Assembly: GCA_963402885.1 (NCBI GenBank)
Contig: OY727098.1
Location: 124,001 to 188,000, forward strand
Origin: Antedon bifida
Lineage: Eukaryota; Echinodermata; Crinoidea; Comatulida; Antedonidae
DNA length: 64,000 bases
Direction of reading: 5' to 3'
In this document: piece by piece, positions 12,358 to 57,800 of the stretch
How the letters are laid out: every line of letters begins with the position of its first letter
How positions within the stretch are numbered: position 1 is the stretch's first letter
Program-made: the position numbers and the translations under genes
The notes under the pieces: generated by a model
The model's database searches: none
What the model was told of the DNA's origin: nothing
Seen by the model: the letters and a program-made list of their open reading frames with translations, nothing else

Positions 12358-12596
12358 ACATAGCCAGTAGGCTCAAAGGTCTATCTTTGGTAGGCTAGAG
12401 TAGTATTAGCCGCCCGCCGTGCCCGCCGGGAACACCACCGCTTTGTTTTCATTCGTCGGGTCTTCGACGGTATGCTAACAATAACAATATTTTCACTACT
12501 AAAATAAGGAAATGCGATATTATCTTTAATTTTGAATCATTCTTAGAAATTACTATAAAAATATGAGTGTGCATGATTTCACAATCTGTCGAAAAA

Positions 12597-21200: not shown

Positions 21201-24200
21201 AAATTGTGTGTTTGTTTAGCCAAACACAATTAGGATATAAACAACTTTTACCTTCTTTCAGGACGTGATAAACAAAACGTTGATTGTTTCTGAGCCACAT
21301 GTGTTGCATGCCTATAGGATGTGCCGGCCAGGAACTGCTGGCAATGACAGTGTTTGTTTTGAAATACTTGGGTTTGACATATTCCTTGATAAGTCACTCA
21401 AACCTTGGTTGTTAGAGGTAAGACATCGCGCCATCTTTTTTATACAAATCCTAATTGCAGATATCAATAAAATCTCTTCTTGTAAATATATTCTGGACTC
21501 GCCTTGGAACTTGACTTTTTGGTCCAGCCAAAAATTGTACATACAGTATAACATTATAACAGTGTGTTATACAAAACATGTCTATTAGCTTCATAATGTC
21601 AATAATGAAATGATAACCTAAAAATAAAGTTTGAAATTGAAAAGAATGTCCTTTTTTGTGGCATACCTATTAAATGAGAAGTTCTGCTGTATTCTTATAG
21701 GTTTCTCAATAATTTACTCAAATAACACATTTATGTCCGTAATATGAAAAACTTTGTTGGGTCTTAAGGTGTCCTCTTAATAGCGTTCGACTAAAAAGTA
21801 AAGGTAAATAATTGTGCATTAAAAATAAAATTGTAAAAGTTCTTCAAAATGAGGTTTGGCTCTATGCTAACCAATGCTCTAGGAATTGTAGGAATGTAAC
21901 TATCATAAAAATCATGTAAAAATCATTTTATCTATAAACTAGATTTTTTTTTTCTATTCGTTTAGATTAATCGAGCTCCAAGTTTTGGAACAGATGAGAA
22001 GATTGATCTTGATATTAAAGGTGCTTTACTGCATGATGCATTTAGATTAATAAACATGAAGCCATCAGATAGACGGAAGGGAATGGCAGCCCAGAAGGCA
22101 GAGTCAAGACGGAGACTGTTCAGGCCTAGCAAACGATTAGACTTGGATTTGACAGTAAGTGAATACTACCACAGTAAACAATTGGCATCATTGTCATTAG
22201 CCAAAAGAGGGCCTGAATAAAAAAGAAAATTTTTCATGAATATAACATCATAAAATGTTTAAATTTTGTTCAAATTAAAAAAGAAAACTCTATTAAAACT
22301 GCATTTAATATGTGAATCACAATGACAGTCGCCCTAATCAATATCAAACCATAAAACGTTTATATGACAATTACACCATTTGTTTTTAGGTTTAATGGTT
22401 TTTTTTTGCATTGTCCTTGTTTTTAAACCTACAATCTTTTATATAATTCTATTCATTCTATTGCTGTAGGATATTGATCGCAGAAAAATTGTTGTTGACA
22501 GAAGGAAAGAAGAACTAAAACAAAAACTGATCAGCATTCGCCGAGATAATGCTCGGGAAGATTTTGAGAATCGTAACATGGGGCGGTACCAGCGAATATT
22601 TCCTCCTCCAGATAAAAGTTCACAAGATCGCTATCGGAAGCTCATCAGTGATGCTTTTAACATTTTTCTAGCAGGGCGTGCTGCTTCACTTCAAAAAGAA
22701 ATTGCTAAACTACTCAATGGATCACTTAGGGTAATGAAAGATTGTAACCCCCTTAGTAAAATGGACTAGTCTATGAACTTTTTGTCAATTAAATCTCCTT
22801 AATTTGTAGAATGGCTGTAAAGTTGGAGGACTGTCTTTTTGAATGGCATAGATTCTTGGCCTATCATTCGTCAATGATTTAGGATGGATAAATTGAATAA
22901 AATGATGAATGTTTTGTATTCATTGAATGGAGAGAATATTTCATTTGATGAAAGATTGACAGGTCTATTTTCAACTCATGAAATATTCACACTATCAAAC
23001 TCGTAAACATTCATTATTTGTATATTAAAGTAGTTTTTACTTACAATATTATTTTCTTTTTTACATTAATAGGAGGATGAGATAATTGATATGTTACAAG
23101 CTTGTGATATTGAAGATGATGGAAAACAAAAGTTATTTAAAGGTCCAAAGGTATGCAAATGGAAAGTATAATATACATCTCAAAATTATGAGATGGTATG
23201 CCCTATAAAAAAAGTCTTCTTGGATAGTTATGCTATGCTTATAAAAATGCTTGTGTGCGCTTTAAAGAACCTAATACATCTTTCGAGATGAGTTGGGATT
23301 ACCCCGGTGTACTAGCTCATACATCCATTGTCGTAGACGAATGAGCGCTAGAATTGGCAGCACTGACATGACCCTTAGGGAAGAAGCATGTAGTTGAAAA
23401 TTGTAGTCGTTAAGTTTACAGTGCCATAAGCAATGATCGTTGGAATGGTGGCTATATAAATAGAAAATATTAGTAAACAATATTATTTAGATAAAGAAGT
23501 ATTATTTTTGTTTAATTTCTTAGCCATTATCATCTATGCCATCTGTTGTTGATGAGATTCCAGAGTGTGATTCAAGAGCATCTTCACCTATTTCAACCTC
23601 ACCACACAACTCAGTAACAGATTTCAAGACCAGGCTAACAGCTAGTCAATCTCAGAGTCAGTTAAACAAAGCAAAGAATCCCATTCCTAAACGACCGCAA
23701 TCTGCTCAGAAATTAACAACTAGTTCAAGACCTCATTCCGCTCGTCTAACTAGTGCGTACCAAAGAACAGTGAACCGTAAAAATCAACCTTATCAACTAA
23801 GTGCATCGGATGGAAACTTGGTAGGTCAAAGGTTATATTGTTTCAATGGAAAGTTTCCACTCACTGCAATTACATATCACCCAGTACAGCTATGTGATTC
23901 TTATTGGTCCTGTTAGGTTTTTTTTTTATTTTAATATTTTAAGCTAAACCTTTTGAATGTTCCTGTATATATTTCTTGTGTAAATTGCATCCTTTTTTAT
24001 ATATAATTATCATTGGTTTTATTCTTTTATACAAATTTTAATATTGAGAAAATGTAAATATCTTTGTAATTCAGCTAAGGCTGCGATGATAGTGAAATAA
24101 ATGAAATGAAAAATGAAAAAAAATGCGTATTGTTTATTATATGCATTTAAATTAAATAACTTAAATAACCACTGTTGTTCATCACAAAAACACATGTCAT

Positions 24201-32203: not shown

Positions 32204-33912
32204 CAACGGTTCAAGTTGACGACATGATAAATGATAATAACTATTAGGCTATAATTATAAATCATCTTCACTGAATGTTTAGGCAAATTCATTTGTGCGA
32301 ATCGAACGACACAAAAAAGTAAAAAAAACAATGAAAATTCGCTCGAATATATAGTTAGTTTATTTCACGTCTGTCATCAAACAAATATAAATAAGAGCAT
32401 ATCAATTAAAAAAATAAATAATGGAATACAAAGTTGAGTTGCGTTGTTGCGCAATCGCTCACATTTTGGGCTTTACAATATACTACATGTATTGATTATA
32501 GGCTTATGCAGCACTTGTTTTCTAACTTTACCTGTCAATGTTTGAATAAGAAACAGATGGTGTCGTAATAATCGTATGTTTTATTCAGACCAGATTCACT
32601 CTTTCTTATGTCTAAATATTTCAAAATAGTCTAGTTTCGCAATAAACAAATTATGCAACACTATTGTTTATCAGATATAACGGAATGATAAAAAGACACC
32701 GCAAACCGAAATAAATGTGAATAAAAGAAAATCAATAACCAATATCTGTTTGCCAATCTGAAATTGCAGTTTTTTCTTTAGCTTTTCTCTTTGGCTTATT
32801 TGAGATTCCACACATAAACAAAGACTTAACCAGGTTTTTTGTCTTGATATTTTTTGTTCCTTATTTTATGTGGAACAATAAAAATGAATGAAAAGAATAT
32901 AGTTTGACTCTTGTGGGCGTGGTCATTTCATTTTCACTGATATCACTTCAATTTGTGTCGTTTTTATATCATCCATCTTAAATTCCTCATCAAATTGCGT
33001 TTTTGTTTTGGTTCTTATCTGTGTCTGTTCTTCATGTATGGTATAAATAAATCAAATAATGTTTGTATTGATACATTTTACTCGCGTAAAGTATTGCTTT
33101 TCATATAGTATTATAATATTCGTGTTATTGTTAACATTCTATCCGTCCCCACTTTGCTGCAATGATCTATGCCAGACTATAATGTGATGTCATGTGATTA
33201 TTACGTCACAGAGTAATTCCTCCATGAGTACATCAAGTTGCATCATAACTTCTAGTTCCTATTTCCATTAGGTGTTGGACGTATCGCATATCACACCCTG
33301 TATAATGCCATTTACACCCTCGCTTCCTGGTCCCATGATGAAGAATCTAAATCGTTTGTAGGCCCTATTCCGAAGAAAACGCCTAATATAGTTAAAATTA
33401 GATACTCTGGTAACAGCTTAATCATAGTTTAAGGAACTAAAAATGATTGTTTAAGAATGTTCCCAGCGGCAGTTGCATTCATCATGTGTTCCAACAAAGT
33501 TATTAATAATAATAGTAAGCCTACATTAAATCCATGTATGGAGGAGGAAATCCTTGGTCAACCCCTTAATTCGCAACGCCCATCCCGATACGATACAGTA
33601 TTAAGTTGGAATAACGTGGGTGTTGTATAGTAAAGTGATATCAATATAATTGTTTTATTATTGATTTTTTTTCTTCATAAAAGTATTAATGGGTTTTTAA
33701 GTCATATTAGAGACCGTATAAATCCACTAACCCCACCCCATTCCCTTTTATATATTCTTCTTGCCTGAAAAACCCTAGGATACTTACTTATTTTGTACTA
33801 TTAGCGACCAGGTACTGTTTTTTCCTTTCTTTTTTTCTTTTTCTCATCTTTTGGGTGTTAGTTTCGATGATTGAACTATTGATTAGTTAGTTGATCGATT
33901 GTTGTTTATTGA

Positions 33913-35021
33913 GTTGATATCGATTTAGTCTGTTGTAGTCGTTCTGCATGGTAGTTGATATCGATTTAGTCTGTTGTAGTCGTTCTGCATGGTAGTTGAT
34001 ATCGATATAGTCTGTTGTAGTCGTTCTGCATGGTAGTTGATATCGATATAGTCTGTTGTAGTCGTTCTGCATGGTAGTTGATATCGATTTAGTCTGTTGT
34101 AGTCGTTCTGCATGGTAGTTGATATCGATATAGTCTGTTGTAGTCGTTCTGCATGGTAGTTGATATCGATATAGTCTGTTGTAGTCGTTCTGCATGGTAG
34201 TTGATATCGATTTAGTCTGTTGTAGTCGTTCTGCATGGTAGTTGATATCGATATAGTCTGTTGTAGTCGTTCTGCATGGTAGTTGATATCGATATAGTCT
34301 GTTGTAGTCGTTCTGCATGGTAGTTGATATCGATATAGTCTGTTGTAGTCGTTCTGCATGGTAGTTGATATCGATATAGTCTGTTGTAGTCGTTCTGCAT
34401 GGTAGTTGATATCGATTTAGTCTGTTGTAGTCGTTCTGCATGGTAGTTGATATCGATATAGTCTGTTGTAGTCGTTCTGCATGGTAGTTGATATCGATTT
34501 AGTCTGTTGTAGTCGTTCTGCATGGTAGTTGATATCGATTTAGTCTGTTGTAGTCGTTCTGCATGGTAGTTGATATCGATTTAGTCTGTTGTAGTCGTTC
34601 TGCATGGTAGTTGATATCGATATAGTCTGTTGTAGTCGTTCTGCATGGTAGTTGATATCGATATAGTCTGTTGTAGTCGTTCTGCATGGTAGTTGATATC
34701 GATATAGTCTGTTGTAGTCGTTCTGCATGGTAGTTGATATCGATTTAGTCTGTTGTAGTCGTTCTGCATGGTAGTTGATATCGATATAGTCTGTTGTAGT
34801 CGTTCTGCATGGTAGTTGATATCGATTTAGTCTGTTGTAGTCGTTCTGCATGGTAGTTGATATCGATTTAGTCTGTTGTAGTCGTTCTGCATGGTAGTTG
34901 ATATCGATATAGTCTGTTGTAGTCGTTCTGCATGGTAGTTGATATCGATAGTCTGTTGTAGTCGTTCTGCATGGTAGTTGATATCGATATAGTCTGTTGT
35001 AGTCGTTCTGCATGGTAGTTG
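33913..35021. repeat. 41-bp minisatellite, about 27 units
   Basis: Unit: TTGATATCGATTTAGTCTGT, TGTAGTCGTTCTGCATGGTA plus one base. Units differ almost only at one position (CGATTTAG versus CGATATAG), and one unit near 34948 lacks two bases. The minus strand has no stop codon in any frame across the array, so long overlapping frames appear; they are translations of the repeat, not genes. Confidence 0.97.
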
Positions 35022-35568
35022 ACAAACCATTAACAATTCAAAAGAAAACATGAAATTTGTTTATATATATCTTTTATTCATTTTCACTGAATGGTACTGC
35101 AATTATAACATGTAACATAATAGTTTTTTATGACAAATTTCAGATTGTGTCATTTTCTTTCTGTTGCCTATTTATGGATATTTAATATTTTTTTCCTCGT
35201 TGAAGGTGTATCTAAATCCTCCATTTTGGTTGAATGACATTTTGTATATTTTTCTATAACAATTAAGAGAAGCTCTGAAATGTATTAATTTCCTTAAAAG
35301 TGTTGCTACTACAGTATTAACATTTTGAAAATGAACAAATTATTTTAATTTTTTTTTTCAAATTTAATTTTCTTTACGAAGTGAACAATACATTACATTT
35401 AGTTTATTACTGCCTTAAAATATCAAAATTACAATATATACAAATTTATTCCTTATATTACAATTAAAATACTGCACACATTATATGTATACTACACCTA
35501 TTTTACAAAACTTATTTTACAAATTGTATAAAAAACATTATACTATCTTTATAAACATGTATTGTACA

Positions 35569-36165: not shown

Positions 36166-38624
36166 TCAAGCGATGCGATCTAGAGATTGGGTTGAGCGAG
36201 AGAATCCCTTCTTGTTTAACGACGTCGAAGAGCCGTAACTTGGTCGTGGCGAATGACTCTCCGGTCGTAGGTAATATACTTTCTTATTATTCAGTGACGC
36301 TAATGAATTACTTTTGTAAGCTAAATTACTCTGGGAAGGAGAACCTCTCCTGTTAGATATTGTAGACTTTGGAGAATCTCGTGAAAGATTATCAATTGAG
36401 ATGCTCTTTGTATGTTTATGACTTTTAAATCCACAAGTGCGTTTTACCTTACGGTAGCAACATACACAGATACAGAGGCATAGTAAATTTAGAAAACCAA
36501 TTCCTCCACACAGTATAGCAATGTAAATTACACTTAGGCTTGTTATGCAGCATGTACTTTCATTGCAGCAAGGGTCTGTGCATTTTTCGGACGTAACTGC
36601 GCACTGTGTGTTTATCGTTGGACAGCAGTCAATTGGACAGTTGTCCACTGTTTCTCCGGTGTCCTTAACACAGAATCCATCACCGCAGAAGTTGGTTTCT
36701 TGAGGTACACTATGAGAAAAATATATACGATTTGCAAATACTATTTTACATTAACACATTGTAGGCATATGTTGCAAGTATTGTACAGTTATGTTAGTCA
36801 CGCCTTTTTCATGTGTTTGAAACAATTATTGTCAATTGTAGTTGCTTACAATTAACATGAGAATTTAACTGTGCTTTTTCAATTTATCATCTGTCCTAAA
36901 CTTATAATACTAGACAATTAACTTACTTATTGATTGCAAATAGAGTTGATTATCAAAGCATATTACACTAACTAACAATAGAAAATTACATATGATGGTA
37001 GGTCATTTATGTTATGTTATTTATGTATTGAGTTTAGAGTTTTCCTTTCCTTAAACTGCAACAAAATTATTATTTACCTTTTTGATTCATCTAGATAAGC
37101 TACTTCTTGTGCTGCGCATGCTCCCTTGAAGCATTCGGACCATATCCAACATCTCTCATTGTCGTCATTTATTCCTGTTAGTATCCAACGAGCAGTACAC
37201 CTATAGAATCCAAATATATTAACTTAAAAATACACTTCCATAAAAATGTGATTACATGTTTAATTCGCATTAACGTATAAATGGTCTCTCACAACAGAAA
37301 GGATGTCCCCTGACCACAACACACTTGTACTTGTAACCCAGTGAAAGTACACGGATAGAACAATATCCTAATAGAACAAGTATTTTAAACTAGCTGCGTC
37401 ATGTTAGGTTCCATTTGTTTATACCTTAAGTTCATGAAGTCAACAAACGGTGCAGCAAAACAAAGCTACGAATCGCAATTGTGCCCAAACCTGCCTTGAT
37501 ACGGTAAATGTACCGTGTAGGCCTGCAGGAATCATGTGAATTTTGTGTTTTGTCGAGGGTTTTTGTGCTTTGTATTTTCGTCTCACAGAAACGTATATTG
37601 TATGCATATATGGAAATGATGATTTCACTAAATTGAATTATGAGAAAGCTTGTATCAGGAAAATAATGTATGGAGTAAATGTATTTCTAGCAGTAGCCCG
37701 TGCTAATTCTATTCCATCTCAACCTCAAACATCAAGGGTTAGGGTTGGTTGGAGCATTATGTTGGTGGGGCTTGGTATAAAATATAAAAGTAAAATAATC
37801 GTCTACTTACTTGGCAGTAGCCCATTTCTTGCCGTTACATTTTCCACAATTGAATTCAGAAGTTATATTCTTTGTGTAAATTGTTTCTCCATACGGGGAA
37901 CAATCATAATGTGAAGAACCAACATTCTATACAAACAGAGATAAAAGTTAGCTTAAATTTAAATAAAGAAGGTAGATGAAAAAACGAAATGTTCCAAATT
38001 CAATTTCACTCCTAAATTAACTTAAGTGTAAAGGTAACGTCTAAACTTTGAATAAATAATAAATATCTAGACTGTAGATTATAATATGTTGATTATATTT
38101 AAATTTTAAAATGCACACAATTAAAACATTTAAATGAAGGAAAAAAATATTAATGCCTAAAGTTGTACAGTAATAAATTATAAATAAATCTATCTTGAAC
38201 ATTTGGGGATCGCACTGTAAACACTGGAGGAAAAAATCATCAGAAGAGAGAACTTGTTGACACTTTTCCTTGACTTATCAGTCCTGAGTCCCTGAAGTAC
38301 CAATTTTGTACAGATTATTTGTGGGGAAAATAAATTGTTATATGCATAATTGCACCGGGGATGTAGATGGGAAGGAGAGGTGTCTGTTACAAACGCCAAC
38401 AATTAATATTATAAAAAAGTTGTAAAGCTTACATTGGTACAGTTTGTGTCCTTCTTGCAGCAGGTGTAATATCTCTTACTCGTTGCATTTAAGTCAAAAT
38501 TGTAACATTCTTCGTTTGGAATATCTACTTGTCTTTTCACTTTTGATATATCATTAATCCCAACATACTTCGCGTCTGTATACATTAGCATAACGCATAA
38601 CAAAGCAAGATACATTTTAAACAT
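36166..38624 (-). CDS. Cysteine-rich single-pass membrane protein, paralogue A
   Basis: Family not recognised. Four coding exons (38624-38433, 37926-37811, 37200-37078, 36709-36166), all GT-AG, phases 0/2/2, 324 aa. Residues 1-18 (MYLALLCVMLMYTDA core) form a signal peptide. The ectodomain has four cysteine blocks, one per exon: ECYNF..YYTCC; YDCSP..FNCGKC..W; C-x-RW..RCWIWSECFKGAC; and FCGDGFC..NCPIDCC..CTDPCC..CC. Sequons such as NAT, NIT and NES suggest glycosylation. A helix rich in Leu and Cys (about 201-229, ending CLCICVCCYRKVKR) precedes a 95-residue basic, Ser-rich tail with phosphorylatable-looking SIDNLSRDSPKS and YYLRPESHSPRPSYGSS. The CGDGxC block resembles motifs seen in disulfide-rich ectodomains, but no known domain fits the whole. 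It is a tandem duplicate of the gene at 40648-43618. It could be an adhesion or receptor-like surface protein; that is inference. Confidence 0.85.
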
Positions 38625-38639
38625 TTTGTAATGGATACG

Positions 38640-38815
38640 AAATAAAAATTATCAAATATTTTTCACAATAAAACAATGTGTTTTCTGGAAGTGACTGATA
38701 TTGATCTAGTTTGTCCCTTTAAATACCTTGGAAAGCGTCATAAAACTCACGCTAGCCATCTTCCGGATCGGAAACAATTACTTTGCGTATATATACGGTC
38801 TTACCGGAAATCTTC
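38640..38815 (-). promoter_or_regulatory. Probable promoter of paralogue A
   Basis: Directly upstream of the start on the minus strand: two ETS-type CCGGAA cores, a YY1-like AAGATGGCTAG and TATA-like GTATATATACG / TATTTAAAG. Inferred from position and motifs. Confidence 0.35.
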
Positions 38816-40647
38816 TGTCAAACCATTTTAATAGGTCAATCGTATGTTTAAGGTGTTGTTCAGTATTTTTTTTTTAAATCAAATTATTTATTGTGTCAGT
38901 ACTGTCAAGTGTAATTTTTCTGTGTTTTTTTTGTCGGAATTATTTTTTATTTAAAATGCTTATAGGCCTACGGTATGCTAACTAAAACAATCTAGTAATC
39001 TATGGACCTTAAATATATTTCAGATGTTAAAGCACGTGAAATTGTTATTATTTGGCTGTTTTAATTTGTGTTGAAATGTAGTCCAACCGGAGCAGTGTCA
39101 TTTGTAGACCGTATATTGACCCTTTCCCTTCCTCCTTCTATCTACAAGATCTCCTGCGCGCTTAAATAGTTTGAGGATTTGTGTGAATGTACACATCTCG
39201 CAGCACTCTTTGGCAATTTGCAATCTCTAGTTATGTTTAGGTCCATTATTTCAGTCATGACTATCTATGGTTTTGCTGTCATTGTTGTCATTGTTATTAT
39301 TATTAAATTATGTCAGTTTGTAAACCACATATTTAACTTGGAATTGCATCAGAAATCCCTTATGTACATCCTATTAGAATAGTTCGTTTATATTCCAGCG
39401 GTCGATACGTGTCCTGTCAATACAAGTTCCGGATTAAACAATGTCACATTCAACAATGTCACAGTTATCTGGTGTCATTACAAATTACACCTTAATAGTA
39501 TTACTAAATAAATGTTTTCTTTACTTAAGTTATACAGACATTGCAATTAAATTGGATAAGTTACTATTATATTTACTGCGCCAATTCCAAATTTAACAGA
39601 CGAAGAGTCCCCACATAATATATTTCTCATATTGTTTGGCTTTCCTCCAATATCCCTTGAATTTACCATATGAGGTGATGTTTTTGTTTATAATACAGAT
39701 GTATCTGTATTTCCTTTTCAATTGTTTTACATATTGTTGTATAATGCAACATATACATTATAAAGCTCTCATTTTAATTTAATTTATTCTTTAAAATATA
39801 ATTTTTTTATTTTCATTTTTATCCCCACCACCATAATAACATTTTTTACAATTTTGTTAAACATTTTGTTTATTTTTCATTTTCTTTAAAGATATTGCCC
39901 CTAAAAAAAGTTATAGTTATTCACGTTGACCAAGGATCAAATAAAAAGTTATTTACCTGAAAAAATGTAATTTAAAGCAAAAAATACTTCAAAAAAATTG
40001 ACCGTTTCTTTTGTCTTTTTATAGGCCTAAGTGAAATAATTATTTTTGGGGTTTTTTTTTACAGAAGTGAATAACTTTGTTTAAACTGCAGAATGTCCTA
40101 TTTAAATCTGATTTTATTAATCTTCATTGTTCATGTTTTTGGGGGACAATACATCTTTAAAATATTGTGTCTAATCTTTGTTAGAAGTTTCAGTAAATCC
40201 ACAATGCACATAAATCAAAGGAAACTTATTTTTTGTCAACTTGTTGACCGGTACGGTATGAGTGAAATTACAATGTAGTTTCACTCATCCCTGATACAAC
40301 AACTTTATATAGGTATTGGATTATGAATGCGGATTAATCGTAATAACGATAAACTTTTAAAACATTCTCCTATAACAAGCACGTTTAAGTACAACATATA
40401 TTATTAATTAATTATTGAAATTATATTATTGAAAACAGCAAAAGGCCAACTAATCCTGTTATTTCTTCAGAATTTTGGAGATAATAAAGTTTTCCTTATA
40501 CCAGAGAAAATGAACTGCGGGAATTTCTTATCTCCTGACCATAAACTGTCCCCCTCTAACGTATTGCCAAATTATTGTTGTCACAATTATGATTCGATAT
40601 CATTTTATTTACGTTGGTATGGTAACCGTGTGTTAGTTCAAAATTAT
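38816..40647. other. Intergenic spacer between paralogues A and B
   Basis: Apart from the MITE at 39894-40162, no coding exon, RNA gene or tandem repeat is recognisable. Short frames such as 39179-39382 show no resemblance to any family. Confidence 0.45.
39894..40162. mobile_element. MITE with 'AAGATGTATTGTCCC'-type ends
   Basis: The left edge TTTAAAGATATTGCCCC and right edge GGGGACAATACATCTTTAAA are inverted repeats. The same ends bound the 1.5-kb interval at 62248-63793. Interior sequence (GAATAACTTTGTTTAAACTG, CAGAATG) resembles segments near 24650 and 29775, so the family is dispersed. Confidence 0.6.
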
Positions 40648-43618
40648 CTAATTTCTTGGGTTAGAAGGAGGAGGCTGTACATATTCAATTTGAACAGATT
40701 CTGTTTTGGCGGCGTAAGCTTTTGCCTTTCTTGATCGCTTTCTTCTTTTGATGTTGTTTTTACAATTTCCGTAAATACACCAGCAACATATACAGCACAA
40801 TAGGTTTACAAAAAGTATAGCTCCAGCTATAATAATCAAAAACCACTTCCACCAGCCTTCCCCAAAATCCCCAAGGCTGCCTGGAACCAGATCACAACAA
40901 TGTTTTTCTGAGCAACAAATATCAGGACATGTATTATTGGTAGCAGCACATTTTTTAGGGTTTTCAGCGGCACAACAATCGAGCGGACACGTTATTTTCG
41001 TTTCATTCTTAATTGGTTCGCAAAGCCCATCACCACAAAAACTTAGGTCTACCTGAACCCTATAGAACAAAACGTTTGTTAGAATTAGAAAAGTAATCAC
41101 TAATTCATTAAGATAGCCTTTATAAGTATATTAAATAATATTAATAATAGAATAATATATTATATAAACTCTTTTGGTAATATATAGTGCTAATTTGTTT
41201 TTAATTATAAAATTGAAATAGGAATGTAGCATTTTTATTATATACATAAATACAAAATTAAATCAGTAAATAAATAACTTTTTCATTTTGTGTCTGAAAA
41301 TTAACTTTATAATAAATATAAGGATGTGTAGTTTTAGCTACATGATCTTTTCCCGAGTCACCGTTCAGAATATTATACATAATATTTATAACAATGATTA
41401 TTCTTTGCGTTAGGATAAATACACGTTTTTGTAATTCTGGACCAAAATGACCGTATATAATATATAATATTAACATTTTTATAGCGCGCATTTCTATGAC
41501 ATTTATTACAATCAATTACAGTACTATCAATACTTGTTTGAAATAATGTGTTTAACTGCTTTAAACTGAATATGGTCATTCAATACCACTTAATGCTATT
41601 GTATTAAACGTATACAAAATATTGTGGTATAAAGATATACTGTTGTAAAATTAACATATTAAGATGTGGATATAATTGATTTAATACATGATGAATGCTA
41701 TCTTACTCATTTCCAATCTGTAATTGATCTTCCTGAGCCTGACACGCTCTTTTAAAGCAGTCAGACATCGCCCAGCAGTTGAAAGAACCATGTTTGCCAA
41801 GCCAAAACCAACGAGATCCACACCTGATTAAATTATGGAAGAATTTCATAATATACTTATAGTCCTCTGTAAAACAAGTATTGACTTAATTAATGATAAT
41901 ATATAGTTGGAAAAGAGACATTTTTAAGTAAATGCGAGTACAAGAAAAACAAATTGATACATGTGAGCCCGATAAACAAACACAGAAAATAGGAAATACA
42001 TCGATATTGGTTATAAAATAGATAATAGATACAATTTAATATGAATGGCAAGATGATTGCGAGGGCGCCCCGCAATCATTTTATATTTGCTGTGTCCCAC
42101 CTTGAGTTCAAAATCGTAACTATAATATCAACAGAACATTTGATTGCATTGTAAAGCTCTGTCTACACTATCAAACTTTATGTGACAAAAAAATGTGATG
42201 TGCCCATATATGGACATGATGATGTCATATCAATACCATTATTTGGACATATCACTATATTTGGGCACATTACATTTTTTTTTTCAAACTATTTTGATAG
42301 TGTAGACAGAGCTTTATAGCGTTTATAAAAGAAAATTAAATAGCAATATAGGTGGTGTTTCCACGAAAGATATAAAGGGAAATATTAACAGAACACACAC
42401 ACTGCATACGGTTCCTTTTCTGACTTTATAATAACGATATTACCAGTAATAATGATTTCTATCCTGACATAAATTTAATTTATAACTTAAACTGAAATAT
42501 ACCTTGACGTTTTGGTTCTGGCAGAAATGTGTAGATTTTAAGATATTATTTCTTCAGATCGCTTTCGCAACTCAACATTTATTTGATGTTTTATTTATTT
42601 ATTATTTTGGAGATGGCAGCTAGTATTAAATGAAACTAATTCTGGATGATCAAATACTAAATACTATTTTACTAATTTTTTTCAACCACATAATTTCAGT
42701 TAAGTTTAGCTGATATACTTACTTGTCTTTAGCCCAAGTTTGACCAGCGCAGCCAGCACAATCAAAATATTCGGTTTTATGTATTTTCATGTATGTAGAT
42801 TTTTGTGGTTTACAATCAAAAACATGGTTTTTCTCATTAAAACTCTGTAAAATATAATAAAGTAATTATGAATTTAGTAACTTGTACAGCAAAACTAAAT
42901 GACCAACTAATTGGAAAACCAAATATATCACAGCATATTCAGACAACACTTCCGAGAGATCGGACTTTCAATCGCCCACACAACTCGAGCGGATTGTAAA
43001 AATACTTAAAAGAAGTATATTCATTTTATTTTGTAAGCGCCCTCAGTTTCTTGTGTTCTTTGAATAATTCTGAAACAGGAAAACTTAACGCCTTGGCTAT
43101 ATTCCTCAGCTAATTACGTACAATTTTGACCATCTTTAGGACATATAAAAGATTTAAAATTATTTAAACAGTAAAGTTGTTTTTTTTAGATTTTAGAAAA
43201 CTTAAATATTAACCAAGACCAAATCTCTATATCATAAATATATTCACATGAACGTAAAACAGAGTGGAAAATGCTTTTTAAAAATTTGATTTAATAGTAG
43301 GTCGAAACTGCTTATGATAATAATAGAACAATAATGTGTACAAACCGTAGAACAGGCAGCTGGTTTGTTTACCGTTGCTGGTGTAGAATCAGTTTTACAA
43401 CACGAATGATAATTCCTAAATGATATTCCCATTCGAATTTCGAAATTGTAACATTCCAAGTTCGGTTCAATCGTTGTTTCGGCAATGGCTGTCGTTTCTA
43501 TAGCTTGTCGAACTTGTCTTGAACTAATTTCTTTACTAAGAGAAACGTCCAGTAATAAACACAAAGTAATACTAACAGCATTTGCTAAACATTTTCTTAA
43601 AGCAGTCATGTTGACCAA
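40648..43618 (-). CDS. Cysteine-rich single-pass membrane protein, paralogue B
   Basis: Tandem paralogue of the gene at 36166-38624; family not recognised. Four coding exons (43618-43346, 42844-42723, 41823-41707, 41059-40648), same phases 0/2/2, 307 aa. The N-terminus has a hydrophobic signal segment (AVSITLCLLLDVSLS). Cysteine blocks align with paralogue A: ECYNF..HSCC; FDCKP..FDCAGC..W; C-x-SRW..NCWAMSDCFKRAC; FCGDGLC..TCPLDCC..CPDICC..CC. The membrane helix is about 243-267 (WFLIIIAGAILFVNLLCCIC). The tail is only about 40 residues, very basic (RRKRSRKAKAYAAK), ending in EYVQPPPSNPRN. The tail is unlike that of paralogue A, so intracellular partners probably differ. Exon 1 is longer than in A by a Thr-rich insert before the first cysteine. 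Intron 2 contains an intact MITE. Confidence 0.85.
42152..42316. mobile_element. MITE, best-preserved copy of the family
   Basis: TAAAGCTCTGTCTACACTAT ... ATAGTGTAGACAGAGCTTTA: terminal repeats of about 24 bp, nearly perfect, with TA at each edge. The interior has AATGTGATGTGCCCATATAT, GATGATGTCATATCA and two ATTTGG boxes. It is a good reference for the family and sits in intron 2 of paralogue B. Confidence 0.85.
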
Positions 43619-43974: not shown

Positions 43975-45560
43975 ATCAATTTTGTTAATATTTTGGTACT
44001 ATATGATATATAGAGCAATTCTGTCGCATAACAATTGAATTTTAAAAACCTGATATTTTGACTATTTTCATCACTGTAGGCTACTATAGTACAGGGATTT
44101 TTTCAAAAATGGCCAATTTTCGACCCTTTTATTTTTCGACATAACTGGTGTCTATGGTACTATAAAATGATGATAAAGCAATATATGATCATATAGAGCA
44201 ATTTTATCGCATAATAATTGAATTGTAAAAACCTGATGTTTTGGCCATTTTTCGAAAAAATCCCTGTACTAAGGGTACTATAGTACATGGATTTTTTCGA
44301 AAATGGCCAATTTTCGACCCTTTTATTTTTCGACAAAACTGATGTCTATAGTACTATAAAATGATGATAAAGCAATACATGATCATATAGAGCAATTTTA
44401 TCGCAAAATAATTGAAATTTAAAAACCTGATATTTTGACCATTTTCGAAAAAATCACTGTACTATAGTACAGGGATTTTTTCAAAAATGGCCAATTATCG
44501 ACCCTTTTATTTTTCGACAAAACTGATGTCTATAGTACTATAAAATGATGATAAAGCAAAATATGATCATATAGAGCAATTTTATCGCATAATAATTGAA
44601 TTTTAAAAACCTGATATTTTGACCATTTTTCGAAAAAATCCCTGTACTATAGTACAGGGATTTTTTCAAAAATGGCCAATTTTCGACCCTTTTATTTTTC
44701 GACAAAACTGATGTCTATAGTACTATAAAATGATGATAAAGCAATATATGATCATATAGAGCAATTTTATCGCATAATAATTGAATTTTAAAAACCTGAT
44801 ATTTTGACTATTTTCGAAAAAATCACTGTACTATAGTACAGGGATTTTTTCAAAAATGGCCAATTTTCGACTCTTTTATTTTTCGACAAAACTGATGTCT
44901 ATAGTACTATAAAATGATGATAAAGCAATATATGATCATATAAAGCAATTTTATCGCATAATAATTGAATTGTAAAAACCTGATGTTTTGGCTATTTTTC
45001 GAAAAAATCCCTGTACTAAGGGTACTATAGTACATGGATTTTTTCGAAAATGGCCAATTTTCGACCCTTTTATTTTTCGACAAAACTGATGTCTATAGTA
45101 CTATAGAATGATGATAAAGCAATATATGATCATATAGAGCAATTTTATCGCAAAATAATTGAAATTTAAAAACCCGATATTTTGGCCATTTTTCTAAAAA
45201 ATCACTGTACTATAGTACAGGGATTTTCGAAAAAATGGCCAATTATCGTACCTTTTATTTTTCGACAAAACTGATGTCTATAGTACTATAAAATGATGAT
45301 AAAGCAAAATATGATCATATAGAGAAATTCTATCGCATAACAATTGAATTTTAAAAACCCGATATTTTGGCCATTTTTGAAAAAATCCTTGTACTAGTAC
45401 ATGGATTTTTTTCAAAAATGGCAAATTTTCGACCATTTTATTTTTCGACATAACTGGTGTCTATGGTACTATAAGATGATGATAAAGCAATATATGGTCA
45501 TATAGAGCAATTTTATCGCATAATAATTGAATTTTAAAAACCCGATATTTTGGCCAGGAA
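43975..45560. repeat. Satellite of about 184-bp units with palindromic junctions
   Basis: About eight units of 182-195 bp. Each contains TGGCCAATTTTCGACCCTTT, TATAGTACTATAAAATGATG and ATATAGAGCAATTTTATCGC. Units meet at AAAAAATCCCTGTACTA / TAGTACAGGGATTTTTT (44633-44666 is perfect over 34 bp), so each unit edge is an inverted repeat. Copies differ by a few bases, and two junctions carry an extra CTAAGGGTACTATAGTACAT form. No coding sequence. Confidence 0.95.
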
Positions 45561-48898: not shown

Positions 48899-51800
48899 TT
48901 AAACGTTTGCGTACAGCGCTTCTTCTTGTGGAACATTGTCGTACACTTCAAAGGCAAGTAAGTGCTCAAGTATTGTTTTGTAAACAAACTCATATTGTGA
49001 CTATACAATAAAGAAACAGATAAATAATTTAGCACAAATAACAATTGTCTAAAAAACAAAGGTATGGAACTGAGGTTTAAGCCCTCTACATGCCCACTGT
49101 AGCCTCAGAGTAGGATCACGACTGGGTGTGCTTACTTGTTTTTTGTATAAGGAAAACCAAATTAAAAAACAGTTGAAAACATTTTTGGGTAAACATATTC
49201 TTGCTATCGAAGAAATGAAAATTTGATTAAAATTCTTAAACAGGTAAAAACTTGATTTCATGCAATATCATGATTATTTTTTAATGCATCAATCATGTCA
49301 ATAGCAAATAAGAAAATAGAAGAACTTACCAATGTCTGTACCATCCCTAACCTGTTGTTTCTCAACAACTTAACGCTCTGCAATATATCAACTGTCTGCT
49401 CCTCAAGTAATCTACGAAGACTGGACATAGTTGCGCAGAACACTCCAGTACGCCCCAAACCATCTCTGATTAAGTAAAATTGAATAAAAATAAGAATAAA
49501 GAACATAACAATTTTAATAAGAGTGGACTTTAATTCTTAAAATCGTATGTGTGAGCACAAAGAACTAAATCACGATCCAAGTATTCTGTCAGTAAACATC
49601 TTGGTGTGTGACTGCACATGCAACAAACATTACAGTGGTAGTAACTGCATACTCTCTGTGCCTTTAGAATTGGAAGTACCAATTAATGGTCGTTTCATTC
49701 ATTTACTCTTTAATTATAGAGGAAGTCTTTAATTAGAGGTACAGACAACGCAAAAAACTAAAAGAAAATTTTCTTTCATAGTTATCTTTCTTTTTTCTTT
49801 TTATACTCATTATTGGAGGTTGTTTAAAGAATAGTATGGTTTTAATTGGATTCCTTCATGTTCCCACACTCTTTACTTACAAGCACATAACAACCATAGT
49901 AGGGTCTTCTATTTCTGATTGCCAATTGTTAACTACAGTAACAAGCTGTAGAAAATCTGCTGTTGATTTTGGTGTGAAGCTGTTGGCTGGCCAGCCAAGA
50001 AACTCGAAGATCTTCACTTCCAAGGACTTTTTCTTTTTTGCAAACACAAAATAAAATTAGTGAAGAAAAAAAAGGTATTTTTAACATTTACTACAGGTTT
50101 AGTGTTCTAATATGAATTAAATGAATGAATACTAATAATAAACAATGTTTTGAATGAAGAAAGATGAAGAAGGTTTTCTACAATAGAACAAGCGATGTGA
50201 AAAATAAAACTAAAAGGAACGTTACATTTCTATCATACTAGAGAAATATTTTAGGTTGCCGAGAAAATAATTGTGGAGATAAAATAAAACAGCACATTTT
50301 TTTATAAAGAAAATTGTCTCATAACTTGTAAGCATTATTGCTTTTTTTTTTCATTGTTCTTTTCCATACAGTGCAAACAACAAGTTGTGCTCATCAATGT
50401 TTTTTTCTAAAATGCTCATTATAAAATACACACTGTAAGTACAGTAGTTGATGGATTGGAAAAGCATAGGCAGCTGTTTTACGCAGACAATGCTCAGTAA
50501 AAATAGTCTACTATGAGATCTAGCCTTAAAATAAAATTGTTAATAGATATTAACAAATTAGCACTCATTTTGGCTTAGCTTAAAAACACTTTTCTTGGCA
50601 ACTTTGTAAAACATTTTCTAAACATGCAGAATAAATGATAAATAAACCAACCACCAGAAATAAAGAAAGGAAACACTAAGGAGGGAAGGAATATGCAGCC
50701 ATCAAGCTAGACGCTCAGCTTAAGCCACAAGGAAACACAAAAGCTGAAACAAAAACACAAACATATCAATATAAATAATTTAAATATTAGGCCTAACATC
50801 AATTTTATTTATGCAAATTTTGAATAAAATGTTGTTTGTTAATGTAAGATTGACACACTTTCTTGTCACTCACAGTTAAAATATTGATACAAATGTTGAT
50901 AAAAATGTTAATATAAATGTTAATATAAATATGGATATAAATATTGATAAAAATGTTGATATAATATAGATAAAAATGTTGATAAAAATATTGATATAAA
51001 TATTGATATAAATATTGATATAAATATGGATATAAATATGGATATTAAAGGATATAAATGTTGATATAAATATTGCTATAAATATTGATATAAATGTTGA
51101 TATAAATGTTGATATAAATATGGATATAAATGTTGATATAAATGTTGATATAAATGTTGCTATAAATGTTGATATAAATGTTGATATCAATGTTGATATA
51201 AATGTTGATATAAATGTTGATATAAATATGGATATAAATGTTGCTATAAATGTTGATATAAATGTTGCTATGAATGTTGATATAAATGTTGCTATAAATG
51301 TTGATATAAATGTTGCTATGAATGTTGATATAAATGTTGCTATAAATGTTGATATAAATATGGATATAAATGTTGATATAAATATGGATATAAATGTTGA
51401 TATAAATGTTTTGTAGTTTTCACATTTATAAGTTTCTTCAATAAAGTTTTAATTTTAATATTTCTATGATGCAAATTTATCTGCTTTTAAATTTATTTTG
51501 AAATATTTTTAATAAAGAATTATTTCTAAATTAAATAACCTGCTTTTTGACAATGTCTGTGTTTCCGCAACCAATACAAAAATTTACGAACAATTGCAAT
51601 GCAACAATATGTCCTTCAGGTCAAAGGTTAACAATTATCAAATTTATCAACTAATCTTCCGATTTGAATGAGATAGTTATTATTTTTTTATCTGCCTGTG
51701 GAAACCTCGTTTCCACAGGCAGTTTATCAGTTAATTATCAGTACTTTTTATCGATTAATTATTGGTTAATTTTTGGCTGCGGAAATACGGCCAATGACGC

Positions 51801-54800
51801 ACTAGATAAGTTGGTATACAGGTCTGATTGAATGAATGATGGATAGTCATATCTGTATGTATGTTGGTAGATATTAATAATGTTATATGCTTCTATATTT
51901 TTCACAACCAAGATTTATACTTATACGGCAAACAATAAAGCATCACAAATGATAAAATACTAAAAATAAACATCATATAAATAAAACATCAGAAATATAG
52001 TGCTTAACAAATGCTTAATTTGAGATGGAAGAATGTTAAATGCCACATATCCCACAATTTACAAATGCCTACAGCAAAAATAAAAATACATTAAAACATA
52101 GCCATACATTTTACATTTTATTTTTAATAATATTTTTTTTTTTGCATGTAAACAACACAGTAATTGCTATAGCCTACCTTAAAATAAATAATAAAAATGA
52201 ATACAATAAATTAGAAATACAAATTTGAAGATTTGAAGATTTTGCAGAATGAACAAGATAATGAAAGCATACCTCATCGTTCTTTGTAATATCAAATGAG
52301 TGAATGTTAATATGTCTTGATAATTTTTCACTTGTTAATGAAGATACTGTCAGGTACTTGAAACTGAATTGCAGATTCAATTCTGGCCAGAACTCTGCTA
52401 CAGTCTAAAGAAATATAATAACACAAATTAGTTAGTTACAATACTTATATACAATATTATAATAACAATAAGAATACTTAAATGAATGGAGAGGATAAGG
52501 AGAGAAAGGATAAATAACCACAACATTGGGAGAGGCTTAACTACAACATAAGCCTTATGCACAGGTTAGTATAGTGATAAAATGATCTTAGATAATACAT
52601 ACACTATCTCGGTTCACCATGTCAGTGAGAACGACAATAGCCCGTGAGTTGTAGTCAACCACCATTCTCCAAAAGTCTTCAATAGTGTTTTCCATCGGAG
52701 TTTGAGTACCAATAAACATGTCCTTTTTATCAAAACTCTGAAAATAAAAAAAGACAAGATAAGATCCACCATTCTTACCTTTCAACCATGCATTCTAACA
52801 TTGTAAATATTATGATGTAGATATAGATATAGATATAATTTTAATTTGTTACAGAGGGTTCTGGATATCTGGATATATCAGCTACAGAACAGCTGGAATA
52901 TTCAGCTTGTGGATTTATAAGCTACAAAGTAGCTGGGATATCTTACCCCTGGATATTTTACTTACATCAAAGAAGGAAGCATTTATGTAATCTGATGGTC
53001 CATCTTCACCTGGAGTCATAATGAATGGTCGATTACGGTCAACTAAACAAGACAAATTATCCATAATTAAATGTCGCACATGGTAAGGCATAAATGTAGA
53101 CATATAATAACCATCCTATTTATTTCTTTCAAGGGATGTTCTTGTGATAGCTTAAACATAACAAATATCTTTAAACATGAATGTGCATCAAAAATTCTTA
53201 CGGTTAATATTTAAACATTTGGACATCATCAACTATCATTGACCCCATATACACTTATAATTTGGGCAATCACAGGACAGGGCCTGGGTCCAGGAACAGC
53301 TTTTATGCTTGGGCCGCCAGTTTATGCAGTGAACCGTGGCCAACACACTGGATTAGGCTCAATCAATTAAATTTGGACCCAGTCCTGGAGCAACCCAGTA
53401 CCCAATTGTAAGTGTAAATGGGGTCTTTAAACAGTTGCCAATTAAATGGGGCAACCCCGGTAAAATATTATGAAATAAAATTAAATGTATCCCAGGAAAC
53501 AATTGCTCAACTTCCTGACAAAAAAATTATGAAAAAAATGAAAGTAATAGACTGAACCTACAAGGCACCAAATCAGGATATCTGTTTTTGTCTCTGTTTT
53601 CAGGTCGGAATCCACCAGTAATTTTATGACCACCAAGAATTGATGATAAACCTTGAAGTGCCTGATAAACAAATCAAATAATTGGTTTAATATAAAGTTG
53701 CAATGACCATACAGGTAAAGGGTACATTCAAAAGATGTACAAGGTTTTTTTTCAATAGTGCAGATGAGTAAATTTGATACACAAAAAAATACTTCTGTAG
53801 TTGCAATCCAATGAGAAGTCAATTCTGAAATCTAAGAATTAAAGGTACATCGCATGTCAATTCTGAAACCTTATGTTATGTTGGAGGTACATCAGAATTA
53901 CATCAGAGTTAACAGAGGTATAAGGGGGGTAACTGATCACATACGTTGGTTGTAACTCAGATATGATTCAGATTAGCTTAACTCTGTTTCATGTACTCTA
54001 GTGTGTGTGAACATTTACAGTATTATGTTCTTATCAATGTGCAATATGCTCATATTCAAGTTGATTCTTTTAAATTGTTTGTCAAGACAAGGAGTTATTC
54101 TAGATGCCCTCATGGTTAAGGTTTTGGTTTTTTATATGTACCTTACATCCATAATCATTTTTAAAAATAAACTTACTTCAAACTCATCTGCAATATATGA
54201 CTTTTTAGACTTGGGGTTGATAGCCCTGAGTTTCTGGTAATGTTCTTTGAAGTCTGATGCAGCACGTGATGTGTCTCCAAAGAGAACAAACTCTAGAATA
54301 GTGTTATATACAAACAAGTACTGCAACTACAAAAAAAAACAAAAACATTTGGAACATTGTTTTTTTCAGGATACTAAAAGCTGGTTTTATCTTGTGTAAA
54401 GTAATTTTCTGATTTATCAATCATATAAATATATAGCTTAAAAGTAAATATCATCATCTTAAACGATAATCGTCATTAGACATTGCACGTCTCACTTGTG
54501 TCCGCCACTCTGTATGTTTTTAAGCAAGCATGTGTAAAGGTCCACATGTAAAATGTTCTGTTTCCTTTTTTTATGTTTGCCATACATTTTTTTTTCGGTC
54601 TTCATTTTGGTCTTTTAGTCCAAAAGTAAAACTAGTGATGAACAATATATCAAAATTAAGTTAATGTAAATCTAGTTAATATAGTAGTTACCGGTGTTTG
54701 AACCATGTTTGGTCTGCGTTCACGCATATCTTTCACAAATTCTAGAATGTTAATCTCTCCAGTTTCAGTTGCCATTTTCATCATAGCGTCAATTGCTATT

Positions 54801-57800
54801 ATCGCTCCTGTTCTACCAGCACCAGCACTATAAGAAATAATTTACATTACATTATATACATTGCATGTGATGAAGTATAACCTCATGCTTGAATGGACCC
54901 TCTTCAATCTGACTAAAAAAACTCTTGTCTTCATATCAACTTGCAATATTACATTTATAGTTTATTTATTTACATTTTATCAACCTGATCAACGTCATGC
55001 ATAATTAATATATTATATTTTTCTCTTATATTAAAAAACTTTAAAATCTATTACTTATTGTCCTATTACCTGCAATGTACTAATATTGGTCCAGCATTTG
55101 ATGGCGTTTCGTTGTGTATAACATTTAACATATTGATGACTGGTGATGATGATCGAGGTATGTTCTTATCTGGCCATACAAAGAAGTGGTATTGCTTAAC
55201 AAATCTTATTTCTGTACCCTGAAAAATAATTTATGAGGAAATTAACAACACTAGTAAAAAACTAGGTAATACCACTACCACTTTTTAACCAGTTTTCACA
55301 TGCACTCGTACAAATTGAATTGAATTTTGCTTGTAAAATTCAAATCAGCTGAGATCCAAACACAAATCAATCTGAGACTACTATTTACAGCAATGTTAGA
55401 ACTGGTAATTTATAGAGTAATTTCCATACAGTTGCATATTAAATTGGTTTTTTTTTTAAATTACACTGGTCCATATTACAGTTTTTTTTTTTACAGTAAC
55501 CTGAAATATCTTACCTTCACTACTTTAAGTTTCCTTGTAAGATAAGATGTTTTAGAAGTTTCCTTCAAGAAAGAAACATTTAACTCTCCATATTTGTTTA
55601 CGTTTTCTGGCCAGTATTGTGTGCATTTATTCTACAAATATATATAAATAACAAATAAAAAACTGACAATTATAACCACAAAAATTGAAATGTATGTCAT
55701 TTCTATATTTCAGTAAAAAAAGCATTTTACAGTATTTAAAATCACATTCTGAATGTGGTAACAAATAAAATTTTTTTTTTACTTTTTAAGATAAAGTAAT
55801 ATATCGTAAAACCTCGAAAAGAAGTCTATCTCAAAAATGTATTTGGGGTTTTTTTGTGAAGCTCACCCAAGAGTCCTTAAGAAGAAGCTCATGGGCTTCA
55901 ATTAAAGGTTTTACGGTAAACAATATTTGTTTGTAATAATCTGCTACTCAAGTGATAGAATTCATGTTCAAGTCTAAGTTGCTGGTTCTTTCTTTTAAAA
56001 CAGAGGAACTCTCTTAAAATGAGAGGTTCACAAAACAATATCAATATGCAGGAGAATGCTTCAATCTAATGACAAACAAGATTTCATTGCAATTGATGCA
56101 GTGTAATCGTACTGATCTAGAAAGAAAAAAATAATTATACTACCTTCCCATCCTCAACTAGGTTTGCTGTCATGATAATAACAGACACATTCTCCTGCCA
56201 GATCATTCTCCAGAAGTCCACAACGGTTGATTTATTTGGTCCTTGTGCCGCAATGTATTCATTTTCCTTCACAAATCCCTATAAATGATTATGCAAAACA
56301 CACATGTTTCTAACTAAATATCTATTAATTAATTTAATGTTAATTAATGGAGAATGTATAGGCAAAACTGTTGTTTATCTATTTTAGGAATGAGATTGTT
56401 GCACCTATGCTGGATTAGAGCTGTGCAGGACAGAAAAGGATAGGCTCAGTCTCTGAGGAGACGTTTCTCTTGCTGAAATGATGATGAATACACAATATAT
56501 CTATTAATCAATCAAACACCCAAAACTGTTTCAGACCATTGAATTGACATACCTTAATAAAGCAAGCATTGATGTAATCAGAATATGGATTGTCATTTAT
56601 CACATCAAGGACAACACGATGCTCATCATCTAAATAAGAAATATTTTTATTTTACATTCATAAAAATAATTATTATAATTCATGATATTTGATCATTGTT
56701 GAATTATATGTTGAATTTATTACATTTTTAGTGCAAAGGCCGTGTTTGATTTCTCAAACAACTGATAATCATTGGAATATAACTGTCTAAATATATTTAT
56801 TTTATATCTACATGTTCTGCATAAATAATATATTCATCAAGAATCCCACAGGATAAAAATACACAGGGCTAGAATATTTCCCAGAGTCGCAAATACTTAC
56901 AAGGAATAACATTGCGATAACGATTCTTGGTTGCATTATTTGATTCCAGACCAACAGACTTACGAGCATCGGTTTTAATACCTTCCGGAAGAGACTAAAA
57001 ACAAAACCAAATTTCAAAGTTCTGCTAAATTCTTACACAATATCCTATTTTATACCAAACATCCATGACTTTATATTAAACATGTCAAACACAATACAAA
57101 TCAAAATCTATATTGGCAAAAATCAAAAGAAACACTGTGCCAGTTATGAATATTTTAGCAAATGCATTTTGACTGTGACACTTACTTGACTGTGGCAGAA
57201 TATAACTTCAGTATGTAGAGTAGGGTAATGATATTGAAAATTAATATTGGTGTTTCTAAAATAAATTTAATGTAATCTGTGCACACATCATTAACAATGG
57301 CTCTCATGTGAGCATACATTATCATGCTAGTACGTTTTTTATACAAACTGTGTGACAACTACTTCAGTGATTATTAAATAAAATAAGATTTCTTTCAATA
57401 TTTTACCTCCCATTCTTGCGTAAGTTGTTCATTTGCTTTCTTCTCCTCAATATACTCTGCTAGTTTGTGTATTGGTATCGCAAGCTGTATGAAATCTTGG
57501 ATTACATATGGATCAGGATCAGGTGTATAGTTGGAATAATCCTCTGTAACAAAAACCATAACACATTCTTGATGCAATAATCTATTAGAAGTTTACATTA
57601 TCTCATTTGGCTGAAAACATGATACCATGTTACCCATTGATTTACAACATGATACCTACTTATCCATTTGCCTCACCACAACATGGTTAAATATTTATAT
57701 GTATACCGTTTACCTTGATTGTTAGTGGCTCCTAGAGCAAGTAGCTCATTATTGGTCTGCTCAGGTTCCTTGCCAGATCTTAGCCCATTTGGTGCTGACA

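What the first reader, a model, noticed from the sequence alone, without database searches (positions are those of the whole stretch)
36166..43618. Tandem pair encoding an unrecognised cysteine-rich membrane protein family
Seen: two adjacent minus-strand genes with four coding exons each, identical intron phases (0/2/2), signal peptide, four aligned cysteine blocks, one membrane helix and divergent tails. Ectodomain exon boundaries separate the cysteine blocks one by one. The layout does not match any family I know (not Shisa, TNFR or EGF). Conserved ectodomains with quite different tails suggest duplicated surface receptors that diverged in signalling.
Basis: partly seen in the sequence, partly recalled or inferred. 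Interest (0 to 1): 0.8.

Follow-up and report, generated by a model that had tools for sequence, protein, structure and literature searches.

The report
Tandem cysteine-rich animal membrane proteins
Two neighbouring genes in an animal genome, probably an echinoderm, appear to encode related cysteine-rich proteins that cross the cell membrane once and match no family at the accepted score in the libraries searched, although one part resembles a small calcium-binding loop of the receptor RET and some bacterial repeats.

Summary
Two minus-strand genes, A (43609-40648) and B (38624-36166), each have four coding exons; all six introns are GT-AG, phases 0/2/2. The ectodomains align far beyond chance (0 of 1000 shuffles, also with Cys fixed), codon position 3 diverges most, each has one membrane helix, and the tails are nearly unrelated. 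Neither whole protein reaches a Pfam cut-off. Searches of the 315.6 Mb genome found only these two loci plus two weak hits that I dropped.

Exon 4 carries CGDGxC-x10-CPxDC, like the calcium site of the RET cysteine-rich domain. I tested RET membership: similarity stays within 29 columns, the rest is no better than shuffles, and introns differ. Bacterial tandem repeats match the motif better than RET does. So a small module is shared; RET membership is not shown. A RET gene lies about 97 kb away, so a RET-derived origin stays possible but unlikely.

Best reading: a small family of non-enzymatic type I surface receptors or adaptors with a disulphide-framed calcium loop and divergent tails. The role is inferred. 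Animal protein databases could not be searched.

The parts
43346..43609 (-). Gene A exon 1: start codon, hydrophobic N-terminus, Cys block 1; donor phase 0
   Evidence: (open frame, GT donor)
42723..42844 (-). Gene A exon 2: Cys block 2 (3 Cys); donor phase 2
41707..41823 (-). Gene A exon 3: Cys block 3 (4 Cys); donor phase 2
40648..41059 (-). Gene A exon 4: Cys block 4 (11 Cys), membrane helix, Cys-rich and basic juxtamembrane, short tail, stop
40975..41037 (-). Gene A CGDGLCEPIKNETKITCPLDC motif, putative disulphide-framed calcium loop
   Evidence: calcium only by analogy with RET
40777..40854 (-). Gene A predicted membrane helix (residues about 237-262)
   Evidence: hydropathy
38433..38624 (-). 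Gene B exon 1: start codon, N-terminus, Cys block 1; donor phase 0
37811..37926 (-). Gene B exon 2: Cys block 2 (3 Cys); donor phase 2
37078..37200 (-). Gene B exon 3: Cys block 3 (4 Cys); donor phase 2
36166..36709 (-). Gene B exon 4: Cys block 4 (11 Cys), membrane helix, long Ser-rich tail (22 Ser in the last 98 residues), stop
36625..36687 (-). Gene B CGDGFCVKDTGETVDNCPIDC motif, putative disulphide-framed calcium loop
   Evidence: calcium only by analogy with RET
36460..36534 (-). Gene B predicted membrane helix (residues about 203-227)
   Evidence: hydropathy; helix 58-92 of the exon-4 model

Best explanation
A and B are ancient tandem duplicates encoding non-enzymatic type I single-pass membrane proteins. 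Shown from sequence: four exons each, a conserved 22-Cys ectodomain, one membrane helix followed by Cys and basic residues, and nearly unrelated tails. Inferred: the ectodomain is a compact disulphide-rich ligand- or partner-binding unit. Its membrane-proximal block 4 contains a small EF-hand-like loop held by disulphides (CGDGxC-x10-CPxDC) that may bind one calcium ion, as the comparable loop of RET does. Such a loop would make the ectodomain stable and calcium-dependent. The proteins would act as surface receptors, co-receptors or adaptors that recruit partners through their tails: a long Ser-rich tail in B, and a short tail with an IEYVQPPP stretch in A. The duplicates would keep a similar outside partner and differ inside.
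For: Gene models and phases; chance tests and codon pattern; all 11 block-4 Cys aligned; divergent tails, 22 of 1000 shuffles; tail composition; no enzyme or known signalling domain at cut-off. One confident helix in the exon-4 model of B. Motif similarity to RET: Pfam RET_CRD E 0.01 for the block-4 piece of A and 17.9 bits, E 0.0039, for a tighter piece cut post hoc; hhalign local score 26.7, reached by 0 of 200 with non-Cys columns shuffled and 2 of 200 with segments reordered. RET Asp567, Glu574 and Asp584 surround a site tentatively assigned as calcium (PMC6760901, passages seen); a 2026 review calls it an EF-hand motif binding one calcium (PMC7619074, passages seen). Four bacterial copies share the motif with B at 12-13 of 21 positions. 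Only two loci of the family found in the genome, a lower bound.
Against: The receptor role is inference only. The first and last Asp of the RET site align with the pair, but the Glu sits two residues later than RET Glu574 when aligned without gaps, so calcium binding is not certain. The AlphaFold models are poor outside the helix (block 4 alone mean pLDDT 52.7; whole exon-4 frame 49.5), so no fold search was run. B gives no Pfam RET_CRD match. Signal peptides are judged by hydropathy only, and B is weak. No expression data.
Confidence: 0.55

Rival explanations
1. The pair is a kinase-less offshoot of RET: its ectodomain is a diverged RET cysteine-rich domain that arose by local duplication near the RET gene and now modulates GDNF/GFR-alpha-type signalling as a decoy or co-receptor.
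For: Motif similarity to RET. Several Cys intervals match human RET in order (A 6, reached by 6 of 400 shuffles; B 7, reached by 1 of 400) and B matches this genome's own RET (6 of 400). The only RET_CRD locus found over cut-off in the genome lies about 97 kb away on the same 28.2 Mb contig; a random place within 100 kb would have a chance of roughly 0.0006 (my arithmetic, post hoc).
Against: Beyond 29 columns there is no similarity: the hhalign global score is reached by 97 of 200 and 128 of 200 controls, and even the local match has a probability of only 28% (24%). Cys intervals do not stand out against zebrafish RET (59 of 400 for A, 245 of 400 for B) nor for A against own RET (231 of 400). 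With Cys fixed, B against own RET is reached by 87 of 500 shuffles. As I read the splice sites, RET has an intron after CPQDCV that the pair lacks, and lacks the pair's introns there. Bacterial copies match the motif better than RET does.
Confidence: 0.1
2. An ordinary lineage-restricted orphan surface or matrix-binding protein family whose CGDG/CPxDC stretch is convergent or an acquired module, with no signalling role; the tails serve sorting or anchoring.
For: No domain match at cut-off; the motif also occurs in tandem in two bacterial loci; only two copies found in the genome.
Against: The long Ser-rich tail of B (22 Ser in the last 98 residues) and the Tyr/Pro-containing tail of A are larger than a simple anchor needs; this is a weak argument.
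Confidence: 0.3
3. Gene-model artefact: the exons belong to different transcripts or decayed copies.
For: No RNA evidence was available; B has a weak signal peptide.
Against: Matching phases, splice sites, open frames and codon-position pattern in two copies; 0 of 1000 shuffles.
Confidence: 0.04

Closest known systems
RET receptor, cysteine-rich domain (Pfam PF22540)
   Same: Membrane-proximal position; CxDGxC-x10-CPxDC stretch with the first and last Asp of the calcium site; several Cys spacings like human RET
   Different: No kinase, no room for four cadherin-like domains, no shared introns as read; rest of the domain not alignable above chance; Glu two residues off
Bacterial tandem repeats of the type CGDGFCDSLGGEDAGNCPTDC (L038 Chloroflexi MAG, L040 Deltaproteobacteria MAG)
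   Same: In the 7 of 13 copies with x10 spacing, same Cys spacing and same place of the Glu; the four copies compared share 12-13 of 21 with B and 10-11 with A
   Different: 10 and 3 copies in one open frame in the bacteria (6 of the 13 with a shorter spacing), one copy in each of the pair; bacterial context not examined
Shisa / STMC6 single-pass Cys-rich adaptors (compared from recall)
   Same: Signal peptide, Cys-rich ectodomain ending in CC next to the membrane, Cys-rich juxtamembrane, adaptor-like tail
   Different: No Pfam match of this kind listed at E up to 10

Membership tests
RET | Tyrosine kinase domain after the membrane helix | tested here: not met
   Tails of 46 and 95 residues; no kinase match. 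The RET gene at C11 about 63-69 kb has kinase exons
RET | Cadherin-like domains before the CRD | tested here: not met
   Ectodomain as cut is 199 and 182 residues, no match. The Pfam part is weak: two candidate upstream pieces of this genome's RET matched nothing either; the size is the main argument
RET | CRD matching PF22540 over its length and cut-off | tested here: not met
   A pieces 16.5 and 17.9 bits v cut-off 26, profile 44-72 and 46-79 of 103; B no match; RET of this genome 59.2 bits
RET | Calcium ligands Asp567, Glu574, Asp584 | tested here: inconclusive
   Both Asp aligned; Glu two residues later in A and B (sequences; ligands)
RET | Intron just after CPQDC (as in this genome's RET) | tested here: not met
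   RET exon ends after CPQDCV by splice-site reading, no RNA; none in the pair
CGDG/CPxDC small module | C-x-[DN]-G-x-C ... acidic ... C-P-x-D-C with matching spacing | tested here: met
   In the 237 kb examined, found only in A, B and RET; bacterial repeats share it. Not counted genome-wide
Shisa / STMC6 | Pfam-detectable Shisa-type Cys-rich domain | tested here: not met
   No such match listed at E up to 10; HMMER filters may hide very weak ones
GFR-alpha (PF02351) | GDNF-receptor domain | tested here: not met
   No Pfam match in A or B; the one match found in the genome is on C15

The most novel reading that the evidence does not exclude
The pair are kinase-less paralogues of the RET cysteine-rich domain, born next to RET and acting as decoy or co-receptors for GDNF/GFR-alpha-type signals in an echinoderm. 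A 2026 review says RET lacks paralogues (PMC7619074, passage seen), so they would be the first of their kind to my knowledge.
Probability: 0.08. Interest if true: 0.7.

Novelty: new variant of a known kind. Interest (0 to 1): 0.35.

Why it matters
If expressed, this is a surface protein family unknown to the libraries searched, with a clean old tandem duplication: similar outside, different inside, which makes it a usable case of receptor divergence. The side result may matter more: the calcium-site stretch of the RET cysteine-rich domain, described in 2019 as a new fold without significant similarity to other PDB proteins (PMC6760901, passage seen), shares a small motif with bacterial repeats (two loci seen here; that the type is widespread is recall) and with this pair, which suggests that part of that domain may be built on an old module.

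Tried and rejected
Rejected: membership of RET (see membership test). Weak library hits, none at cut-off, judged chance or membrane-helix matches: SCIMP, NCD3G, Anti-TRAP, FLYWCH, Orthoreo_P10, DUF7496, and eight more for the helix piece of A, among them Hemotin and TMIE; PRK13315 and PRK10092; TMIE at E 0.75 and an eggshell Cys-rich protein at E 1.3 in PDB. Weak genome hits at C16 (E 4.15) and C11:25.74 Mb (E 0.40): neither locus shows the motif, and both were left out of the family count. Viral contigs: 47 and 84 pattern stretches, none confirmed. Both AlphaFold models are poor outside the helix, so no fold search was run. Prokaryote scan: 87 stretches, 4 confirmed; my expression found the motif in 2 (L038, L040) and not in the other 2 (L037, L039). 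For one search I used 4 of the 7 bacterial copies with x10 spacing and none of the 6 shorter ones.

Papers: passages were read of PMC6760901, PMC8266384, PMC3527400 and PMC7619074; all others only as listings. I make no claim that the family is absent from print: none of these searches could find it by sequence.
Full report
OBSERVATION. The two genes are as described. Exons, splice sites and phases were checked on the sequence. A and B share 71 of 210 residues in a BLASTP alignment. Ectodomain similarity is far above shuffles, even with every Cys held in place (z 14.6, 0 of 1000). Codon positions 1/2/3 agree at 0.56/0.59/0.34 over 188 codons, as expected of selected protein. Exon by exon, shared Cys are 3 of 4, 3 of 3, 4 of 4 and 11 of 11. 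Hydropathy shows one clear membrane helix in each; the N-terminal hydrophobic stretch is fair in A and weak in B. The AlphaFold model of the exon-4 frame of B has one helix, residues 58-92 of 180, with pLDDT block means up to 91, and 139 of 180 residues below 50. Membrane region plus juxtamembrane is similar between A and B (0 of 1000 shuffles), the tails hardly (22 of 1000).

FAMILY SEARCH. Neither whole protein reaches any Pfam cut-off, nor do ten exon pieces or six further constructs. NCBIfam gives two chance-level matches among eight pieces. PDB sequence searches give nothing credible. In the 315.6 Mb, 27-contig genome, block 4 plus helix of B finds only A and B; whole A and whole B find the same two loci plus one weak hit each (E 4.15 and 0.40), which I dropped. 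The tool scores only the best candidates, so this is a lower bound.

A LEAD, TESTED. The block-4 piece of A gave Pfam RET_CRD at E 0.01 (16.5 bits) and a tighter, post hoc piece E 0.0039 (17.9 bits), both under the cut-off of 26; B gave nothing. The stretch is the site in RET lined by Asp567, Glu574 and Asp584 and tentatively assigned as calcium (PMC6760901, passages). The genome search found one RET_CRD locus over cut-off, at C11:63381-63572. It belongs to a RET gene: CRD 59.2 bits; of three kinase pieces two are over the kinase cut-off and one just under; and the first kinase piece matches ten PDB sequences at E up to 1e-10, all RET. I did not locate its cadherin-like part: two candidate pieces matched nothing. 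The locus lies about 97 kb from the pair on a 28.2 Mb contig. This made a RET origin worth testing.

RESULT OF THE TEST. Smith-Waterman scores against RET CRDs with Cys fixed were reached by this many of 500 shuffles: A v zebrafish 0, A v human 9, A v own RET 22, B v zebrafish 20, B v human 43, B v own RET 87. Cys intervals stand out against human RET (A 6 of 400, B 1 of 400) and for B against own RET (6 of 400), but not against zebrafish RET (A 59, B 245 of 400) or for A against own RET (231 of 400). Profile comparison: local score 26.7 over 29 columns, probability 28%, reached by 0 of 200 with non-Cys columns shuffled and 2 of 200 with inter-Cys segments reordered; the global score is no better than controls (97 and 128 of 200) (an earlier run with two RET sequences gave 28 columns and 24%). 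By splice-site reading RET has an intron right after CPQDCV and none where the pair has its 2/3 and 3/4 introns. So only the small motif is shown to be shared.

THE MOTIF IS NOT RET-SPECIFIC. A prokaryote scan with block 4 gave 87 pattern stretches and 4 confirmed loci. Two carry tandem copies, 10 in a 484-aa frame (L038) and 3 in a 433-aa frame (L040), of the CG[DN]GxC...CxxDC type; 7 of these 13 have the x10 spacing of the pair. Over 21 columns, against four of those 7 copies, B shares 12-13 identities and A 10-11; B shares 8 with each of three RETs and A 7-9; the RETs share 8-10 with the bacterial copies; A and B share 11. These bacterial copies and the pair have the Glu at the same place, two residues later than RET. 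In the 237 kb around the window a relaxed form of the motif occurs only in RET, A and B; I could not count it genome-wide.

MECHANISM. The best-supported picture is a type I surface protein whose membrane-proximal block contains a disulphide-framed EF-hand-like loop (the RET one is called an EF-hand motif in PMC7619074, passages), perhaps binding one calcium ion, with partner binding outside and partner recruitment inside. Shown: anatomy and duplication. Inferred: calcium, topology, receptor or adaptor role.

SETTING. Minus-strand HYR, EGF and tyrosine-phosphatase exons lie beyond gene A, and a plus-strand set lies between RET and the window. On the mitochondrial contig COX1 lies on the minus strand and frames that I name ND1 and ND2 by eye lie on the plus strand. 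The ND1 frame is open under both code 5 and code 9; I prefer code 9, the echinoderm code, only because its residues look right against recalled ND1. So echinoderm is likely but not proven, and a crinoid is a guess from recall of gene order and low G+C.

Noticed in passing
outside the window, C11 about 63-69 kb (L009): A RET receptor gene (CRD and kinase exons; a membrane-helix frame by eye) in what looks like an echinoderm; a 2012 paper states that RET homologues seem not to be present in echinoderms (PMC3527400, passage seen). A GFR-alpha-domain locus is on C15 (25.1 bits v cut-off 22). The species is not confirmed.
   Followed up: partly
L038, L040: Bacterial frames with 10 and 3 tandem CGDGxC-type repeats that share the RET CRD calcium-site motif; this may say something about the origin of part of the RET CRD.
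   Followed up: partly
window 49261-59409; C11:72-112 kb and C11:173-236 kb: Clusters of HYR, EGF and tyrosine phosphatase exons on both sides, plus strand near RET and minus strand beyond gene A.
   Followed up: partly
window 18353-18856, 21241-21585 and 6448-6753: Two tubulin tyrosine ligase (TTL) exon frames on the plus strand and a SPATA6 exon frame on the minus strand.
   Followed up: no
window 17468-18377, 19539-20326, 33912-35022, 44000-45556: Long tandem arrays (periods 69, 57, 41 and 184/369; 90-100% matches); the last lies about 0.4 kb upstream of the gene A start codon.
   Followed up: no
window 11080-12372: 431-aa frame with a weak zinc-binding reverse-transcriptase match below cut-off (18.5 bits v 27.5), perhaps a retrotransposon remnant.
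   Followed up: no
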